From a virus: a stretch of 64,000 nt of DNA. Below the pieces are notes generated by a model. The model was not told the DNA's origin. It was given only the letters and a program-made list of their open reading frames with translations, and did not search any database. This document shows positions 18,457-18,608 of this stretch, piece after piece. The DNA lies in IMG/VR virus record IMGVR_UViG_3300037245_001419, positions 1-64,000 of that record; one strand, given 5' to 3'. The position numbers were made by a program, and so were the translations under genes. Each line of letters begins with the position of its first letter. Position 1 is the first letter of the stretch.

Positions 18457-18608
18457 TTAATAAAAAAGATGGAAAGGGACAGTCTAACATATTTTTTCTC
18501 TACCAATTGAGCTACATGGGATTGCTCCCACGACTGGACTCGAACCAGCAACCTATTATGTATAAATAATCGAAGTAAGTTAAACTTGCAACACATCTTT
18601 TTTATTAA
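18457..18608 (-). ncRNA. Closed tRNA-like RNA R2, permuted tRNA-Asn-like
   Basis: 15-bp outer helix. The 8-mer at 18579-18586 pairs 8/8 (one G-U) with 18481-18488. Acceptor strands 18515-18521 / 18526-18532 pair in all 7 positions and are closed by a GCAA (GNRA) tetraloop. U1-A72 and G73 and the T arm resemble tRNA-Asn. The anticodon arm cannot be rebuilt cleanly, which argues against a simple splicing product for this member. Confidence 0.72.

What the first reader, a model, noticed from the sequence alone, without database searches (positions are those of the whole stretch)
18457..18608. R2, R6, R1 and R10 cannot yield normal tRNAs, favouring a Y RNA/tRNA-mimic role
R10 (45951-46105) keeps acceptor helix and T arm but has no D arm; R6 has only a T arm; R1 has no tRNA body; R2 cannot rebuild an anticodon arm although its acceptor stem is closed by a GCAA tetraloop. 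A family whose members all keep the outer helix and constant elements but vary in the tRNA part fits a Ro60-bound scaffold with a tRNA-like effector module.
Basis: partly seen in the sequence, partly recalled or inferred. Interest (0 to 1): 0.7.

Follow-up and report, generated by a model that had tools for sequence, protein, structure and literature searches.

The report
Phage Y RNAs with tRNA-like modules
This virus of bacteria carries a Ro60 gene plus eight small 'Y RNA' genes, the known RNA partners of Ro60, which share one docking stem but carry tRNA-like parts in different states, from a nearly whole (circularly permuted) tRNA copy to none; the kind is known, but the variety of tRNA-like parts is not well described.

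Summary
R2 (18457-18608, minus strand) and seven sister elements share an outer helix, the constant TGCA-N8-WTACTTCG and a pairing inner helix. The motif occurs 8 times in the 211,777-bp record, all on the minus strand; the reversed control gives 0. Six lie directly downstream of a TROVE/Ro60 gene and two in the tRNA cluster. R2-R5 and R9 have the permuted order of YrlA (T arm, capped acceptor hairpin, D arm). Rfam YrlA matches R2-R4 below the gathering score, and the same module sits beside TROVE in many viral and several bacterial records. So the Y RNA reading is supported. Two corrections: a capped acceptor without an anticodon arm is normal for YrlA, and joining tests give no convincing anticodon arm in R3-R5 or R9 either, so the contrast between R2 and these members is not real. 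R10 lacks a D arm, as does its counterpart in a relative. R6 matches a relative's element whose tRNA part is in normal order. Nine such normal-order candidates, in seven viral loci, form a topology I could not find described. Function is inferred, not shown.

The parts
18804..20507 (-). Ro60/Rsr-like gene (TROVE + vWA), 567 aa
   Evidence: Pfam TROVE 1.8e-25, vWA_Ro60 3.7e-9; D385, S387, S389, T457, D481 invariant in 24 aligned homologues; PDB TROVE chains 9l5y/9kop E 2.4e-15
18744..18772 (-). extended sigma-70-like promoter TTGACT-N17-TATAAT (11/12, TG before -10) ahead of the array
   Evidence: consensus match only, number of such matches in the region is at the shuffled level
18632..18723 (-). 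R1: Y RNA with outer helix (14 bp), TGCA, 8/8 inner helix, AUACUUCG, no tRNA body
   Evidence: ortholog L130:2518 in G018 also lacks a tRNA body
18453..18612 (-). R2: YrlA-type Y RNA, permuted tRNA module
   Evidence: YrlA 29.3 bits; (z -3.3)
18571..18590 (-). R2 constant element TGCA-AGTTTAAC-TTACTTCG
18533..18549 (-). R2 T arm GCTGG-TTCGAGT-CCAGT
18515..18532 (-). R2 acceptor hairpin CGTGGGA-GCAA-TCCCATG (7/7 pairs)
   Evidence: ortholog TGTTCCC/GGGGATA also 7/7
18498..18512 (-). R2 D arm, followed by an A-run instead of an anticodon stem (A-run kept in G018)
18481..18488 (-). R2 inner helix 3' strand GTTAGACT, then 3' loop GUCCCUUUCC (18480-18471)
18287..18441 (-). R3: YrlA-type Y RNA, permuted tRNA module
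   Evidence: YrlA 35.8 bits
18126..18279 (-). R4: YrlA-type Y RNA, permuted tRNA module, 7/7 acceptor
   Evidence: YrlA 28.3 bits
17977..18118 (-). R5: YrlA-type Y RNA, permuted tRNA module
   Evidence: YrlA 16.2 bits, E 3.4, weak
17788..17906 (-). R6: Y RNA with T arm and one hairpin; same place as a normal-order member in G018
17769..17787 (-). terminator-like hairpin closing the array
   Evidence: consensus match only
46119..46292 (-). R9: YrlA-type Y RNA in the tRNA cluster, D arm present, long capped acceptor
   Evidence: same sequence in G022 fragment
45949..46107 (-). R10: Y RNA in the tRNA cluster, T arm plus a hairpin of about 18 bp, no D arm
   Evidence: ortholog at G018:36653 also lacks a D arm

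Best explanation
The elements are Y RNAs of the phage's own Ro60 (Rsr) particle. Each RNA closes with an outer helix; an asymmetric internal loop (5' ending UGCA, 3' roughly GNNUUUNCC), the 8-bp inner helix and WUACUUCG form the constant end that Ro60 is expected to bind; the variable end is an effector module. In R2-R5 and R9 this is a circularly permuted tRNA body whose acceptor end is capped by a loop and whose anticodon stem is replaced by the Ro60 stem, so it cannot be charged or decode but still shows the tRNA elbow (D and T loops). R10 keeps a T arm plus a long hairpin, R6 little more than a T arm, R1 nothing. Most likely the RNAs gate and tether Ro60: elbow-bearing members bring a host protein that recognises tRNA elbows (PNPase, as in the Deinococcus RYPER particle, or a tRNA enzyme) to Ro60 during infection; bodiless members only occupy or regulate Ro60. 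Shown here: anatomy, conservation, genomic link to Ro60. Inferred: transcription, Ro60 binding, the effector, its purpose. The confidence given is for the identity as Ro60-associated Y RNAs; for the tethering mechanism alone I would say about 0.5.
For: Ro60 next door with invariant MIDAS; Rfam YrlA hits in order; eight copies on one strand with zero reversed control; same module with TROVE neighbours in viral contigs and in bacteria such as Clostridium punense, a Ruminococcus MAG and an Acidobacteriaceae MAG; acceptor hairpins pair at least 6/7 in 27 of 43 motif-selected sequences against 19.5% in shuffles (p about 6e-10); orthologs in G018 change the acceptor sequence yet keep pairing; no convincing anticodon arm; no RNase_PH (PNPase-type) domain found in the record, so a host effector is implied. 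YrlA is known as a circularly permuted tRNA (PMC11472068) and as a DusA/TruB substrate that tethers Rsr to PNPase (PMC8394870).
Against: No expression or binding data. YrlA scores are below Rfam's gathering score (35.8 against 69), and the same family search rings weakly in 7 of 14 control genomes, so Rfam alone would not prove membership. MFE folding does not recover the tRNA body cleanly in R2, R3 and R4. R9 and R10 lie about 26 kb from Ro60. The PNPase partner is taken from Deinococcus and may not hold here.
Confidence: 0.82

Rival explanations
1. Permuted tRNA genes: the 3' half lies before the 5' half, the RNA is circularised and cut to give working tRNAs, as in red algae (own knowledge).
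For: The permuted order is real and acceptor stems of R2, R3, R4 pair fully.
Against: No convincing anticodon arm in R2-R5 or R9; acceptor loops as short as GCAA; R1, R6, R10 lack D and/or acceptor parts; the record already encodes many ordinary tRNAs; no RtcB ligase found.
Confidence: 0.04
2. Decoy tRNAs: the RNAs (with or without Ro60) soak up host nucleases or toxins that attack tRNA during infection.
For: tRNA elbow kept and anticodon and CCA end removed, so they would resist anticodon nucleases; a competitive-inhibitor role was suggested for YrlA (PMC7790460).
Against: Does not need Ro60 or the constant outer module, which is among the best conserved parts; R1 and many relatives have no tRNA body (100 of 222 without a detected T arm).
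Confidence: 0.12
3. Degenerate tRNA genes and repeats without function.
For: AT-rich region, variable bodies, R6 has little structure.
Against: Orthologs in G018 keep order, helices, constants and compensated acceptor stems at 57-76% identity; the module recurs across distant phages and bacteria.
Confidence: 0.02

Closest known systems
YrlA, bacterial Y RNA (Rfam RF02553; structure 6CU1)
   Same: Outer and inner helix with asymmetric loop, permuted T arm - capped acceptor - D arm, location next to Ro60 (R2-R5; R9 in plan)
   Different: Scores below gathering; carries the constant WUACUUCG element where the Rfam consensus has CUA; R9 and R10 have much longer capped acceptors; R10 lacks the D arm; R6 and R1 lack most or all of the tRNA body
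Y RNAs without a tRNA-like domain
   Same: R1: helices and Ro60-side constants only
   Different: Only resemblance of plan, sequence not compared here
Ro60/Y RNA loci of other phages (Listeria phage CKA15, PMC12282133; jumbo phages, PMC7824862; mycobacteriophages, Chen 2014 as cited in PMC12282133)
   Same: Phage Ro60 gene, with putative Y RNAs close by
   Different: Here eight members in two places, six beside Ro60 and two in the tRNA cluster
Permuted tRNA genes
   Same: 3' half precedes 5' half
   Different: No anticodon arm, acceptor capped, Ro60 stem in place of the anticodon stem

Membership tests
Bacterial Y RNA (YrlA type) | Encoded near a Ro60 gene | tested here: met
   R1-R6 lie 81 bp to about 1 kb downstream of the TROVE gene, same strand; R9/R10 are not adjacent
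Bacterial Y RNA (YrlA type) | 5' and 3' ends pair in an outer helix, asymmetric loop with UGC-type 5' element, inner helix | tested here: met
   outer helix 7-14 bp, inner helix 0-1 mismatch in 8 in all eight
Bacterial Y RNA (YrlA type) | Circularly permuted tRNA-like module: T arm, capped acceptor, D arm | tested here: met
   Met in R2, R3, R4, R5, R9; not met in R1, R6, R10
Bacterial Y RNA (YrlA type) | Score over the Rfam YrlA gathering cut-off | tested here: not met
   best 35.8 against 69; none of the 22 other phage and viral records tested passes it either, so the cut-off is stricter than the phage group
Bacterial Y RNA (YrlA type) | Bound by Ro60/Rsr | not testable with these tools
   needs binding assay or pull-down
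Bacterial Y RNA (YrlA type) | Modified by tRNA enzymes (TruB, DusA) | not testable with these tools
   T and D loops are present in R2-R5
Permuted tRNA gene | An anticodon arm can be built from the two ends | tested here: not met
   no convincing excess over shuffled linkers; the test is unspecific
Functional phage tRNA | Called by tRNA finders | tested here: not met
   ARAGORN and Rfam tRNA at gathering find nothing inside the eight elements

The most novel reading that the evidence does not exclude
Phage Y RNAs are a grafting platform: the Ro60-binding stem has been attached to tRNA bodies at different points of the tRNA. Besides the known graft at the anticodon stem (permuted, YrlA), there is a graft at the acceptor end that leaves the tRNA in normal order with D, anticodon and T arms (G018 Y2 and the R6 counterpart; also L203, L143, L019, L092, L187) and one between T arm and acceptor (L093). 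Some annotated phage tRNAs (tRNA-Lys of csAssE-Sib) would then be Y RNA modules. Window R6 would be a reduced member of this second class.
Probability: 0.6. Interest if true: 0.65.

Novelty: new variant of a known kind. Interest (0 to 1): 0.5.

Why it matters
If the Ro60 stem is joined to tRNA bodies at several points while the elbow is kept, the natural set of variants says which tRNA surface the unknown effector reads, and makes that testable by binding assays. It also warns that tRNA finders report some Y RNA modules as tRNAs, and that the Rfam YrlA cut-off misses the phage members tested here.

Tried and rejected
Megablast of the region against phages: no match. A distant DNA search gave only short matches of 5-8% of the query, several of them overlapping annotated tRNAs. 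ARAGORN joining of split halves proved unspecific, since shuffled linkers score as often, so it was used only as a comparison. First-pass D-arm regular expressions misclassified many permuted members as normal order; replaced by T-arm position, ARAGORN and Rfam tRNA model spans. Searching genome contigs by pattern alone returned many hits without a TROVE neighbour, including what look like recurrent unrelated matches; only those with a TROVE neighbour were used. RNase_PH and RtcB domains in the phage record: none. Permuted tRNA genes, decoys and decayed repeats were considered and ranked lower (see rivals). The key primary papers (Chen 2014, Wang 2018, Sim 2018, Sim 2020) were not held, so statements about them rest on citing papers and my own knowledge.

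Full report
What is there. On the minus strand, directly after a 567-aa TROVE/vWA gene (18804-20507), six elements follow in tandem (R1-R6, 18723 to 17788), preceded by a promoter-like site and closed by a terminator-like hairpin. Two more (R9, R10) lie in the tRNA cluster (46292-45949). All eight carry TGCA-N8-[AT]TACTTCG, and this pattern occurs nowhere else in the 211,777-bp record; the reversed pattern gives zero. The N8 pairs with a downstream 8-mer, with 0 or 1 mismatch, next to a 3' loop that often reads about GNNUUUNCC and is enclosed by an outer helix of 7-14 bp (for R6 the long outer helix listed is a distant chance alternative, and the adjacent TAATCAG/CTGATTA read is used). Allowing four mismatches adds no further member.

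R2 in detail. After UUACUUCG come the T arm (18549-18533), a 7-bp acceptor closed by GCAA (18532-18515), U-A and a D arm (18512-18498), then an A-run and the inner helix return. This is the order of Rfam YrlA (consensus seen), which matches R2 at 29.3, R3 at 35.8, R4 at 28.3 and R5 weakly at 16.2 bits, all below the gathering score of 69. None of the 22 other Ro60 phage and viral records searched reaches that score. YrlA is known to superpose on tRNA with a circular permutation (PMC11472068), so a capped acceptor and a missing anticodon arm are the rule, not a defect of R2.

I joined the two halves of R2, R3, R4, R5 and R9 at many cut points and ran ARAGORN, with eight linker-shuffled controls each. 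Positive joins: R2 337 (controls 96-456), R3 217 (445-640), R4 546 (154-501), R5 50 (25-293), R9 665 (246-655). R4 and R9 lie slightly above their highest control, the rest inside or below; this is no convincing sign of an anticodon arm. The method is unspecific, so it argues against a selected anticodon arm but does not prove absence.

Relatives. A scan of viral contigs for the constant element plus a T loop gave 39 stretches; in many, TROVE lies in the same locus and the inner helix is perfect. G018 (104 kb) is a relative with a 73%-identical Ro60, six exact motif copies beside it and one about 27 kb away. Pairwise comparison gives R1/Y1, R2/Y3, R3/Y4, R4/Y5, R5/Y6, R6/Y7 and R10/36653. Constants are identical in R2, R3 and R4 (12/12 each); acceptor strands share 2-4 of 6-7 bases yet pair fully on both sides; D arms are 16-18 of 17-19 identical. 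R10 and its counterpart both lack a D arm and both fold a hairpin of about 17-18 bp. R9 and R10 recur in fragments G019 and G022.

Check of the acceptor on sequences not chosen for it. In 43 sequences chosen only by constant element and T loop, the 7 nt after the T arm pair with a nearby 7-mer at 6 or 7 positions in 27, against 19.5% of shuffles (binomial p 6e-10; the set includes a few close relatives, so p is optimistic). In many of these the pairing 7-mer is followed at once by UAGCUC-like D-arm sequence.

Survey. A descriptor with both helices finds 222 candidates in 84 loci: 94 permuted, 19 with early T arm but no acceptor hairpin, 100 without a detected T arm (75 with inserts of 60 nt or less), 9 with the T arm late. 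Loci overlap in a few cases (different cuts of one contig); near-identical elements were merged by their first 45 bases. Shuffled copies gave 1 and 2 hits for the versions run; the version added a bonus for the 3' loop and was not given its own shuffled control, so its counts are a little less well guarded. The class 'permuted' there also allows a pairing that chance gives fairly often, so the number is an upper estimate; the tight test is. R1-like bodiless members are therefore common.

Second topology. The nine late-T members lie in seven viral loci: G018 (two), L203 (two), L143, L187, L092/L112, L093/L116 and L019. The Rfam tRNA model matches several over its gathering score of 29: L203:883-955 60.4 bits, L019:5811-5884 53.3, L130:2639-2710 45.2, L143:3498-3584 31.3, over the full model; L130:3535-3614 39.0 and L093:3612-3671 46.8 over model positions 7-64 only, that is without the acceptor stem. 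L203:883 even has a 7-bp acceptor and a CCA in the sequence (read by eye). L019's is annotated tRNA-Lys in GenBank record OR575929.1. L143's record fragment holds no TROVE hit, and L019, L092 and one of the two in L203 reach the descriptor only with two mismatches in the constant, so these are weaker. In six of the seven loci a permuted member is also present. The G018 counterpart of R6 is one of the nine, so R6, with only a T arm, is best read as a reduced member. I found no description of this topology in the papers held, but the primary papers and reviews were not readable here.

Function. The known model is Y RNA as gate and tether between Ro60 and PNPase (PMC8394870; PMC7790460). No RNase_PH or RtcB domain is found in this record, and the record may be incomplete, so an effector would probably come from the host. 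Which effector, and what the phage gains, is not shown.

Verdict. The four elements named in the finding are real members of a Ro60-linked Y RNA set. R2 is an ordinary YrlA-type member; R1 is an ordinary bodiless member; R10 and R6 are reduced forms, conserved in shape (R10) or related to a normal-order form (R6). The kind is known; the mix of tRNA joining points in one phage group is the new part and needs experimental proof.

Noticed in passing
L019:5794-5930 (OR575929.1, csAssE-Sib): An annotated tRNA-Lys (5811-5884) lies inside Y RNA helices next to the Ro60 gene; anticodon arm intact, acceptor weak (about 4/7 by eye).
   Followed up: partly
L203:734-985: Two normal-order tRNA bodies inside Y RNA modules, one with full acceptor and CCA (anticodon CAG), one called with anticodon CTA.
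   Followed up: partly
L093:3576-3710: Y RNA whose acceptor hairpin (CTCCCCGCCAATGGGGAG) comes first, then D, anticodon and T arms: a third joining point.
   Followed up: partly
L130:2845-3000: The Rfam tRNA model joins the 5' half of one permuted module to the 3' half of the next (38.8 bits), which would fit an origin from tandem tRNA copies.
   Followed up: no
window 17968-17909: A hairpin AAAATCCTGG...CCAGGTTTT between R5 and R6, kept in G018, of unknown role.
   Followed up: no
window 46267-46908: ORF with weak HNH endonuclease match (below cut-off) whose end overlaps the 5' part of R9.
   Followed up: no
window 54662-57829: B12-dependent ribonucleotide reductase ORF with an intein-splicing domain match (below cut-off).
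   Followed up: no
window 22844-47040: tmRNA (tag ANNTFAVAA) and a large set of tRNAs encoded by the phage.
   Followed up: no
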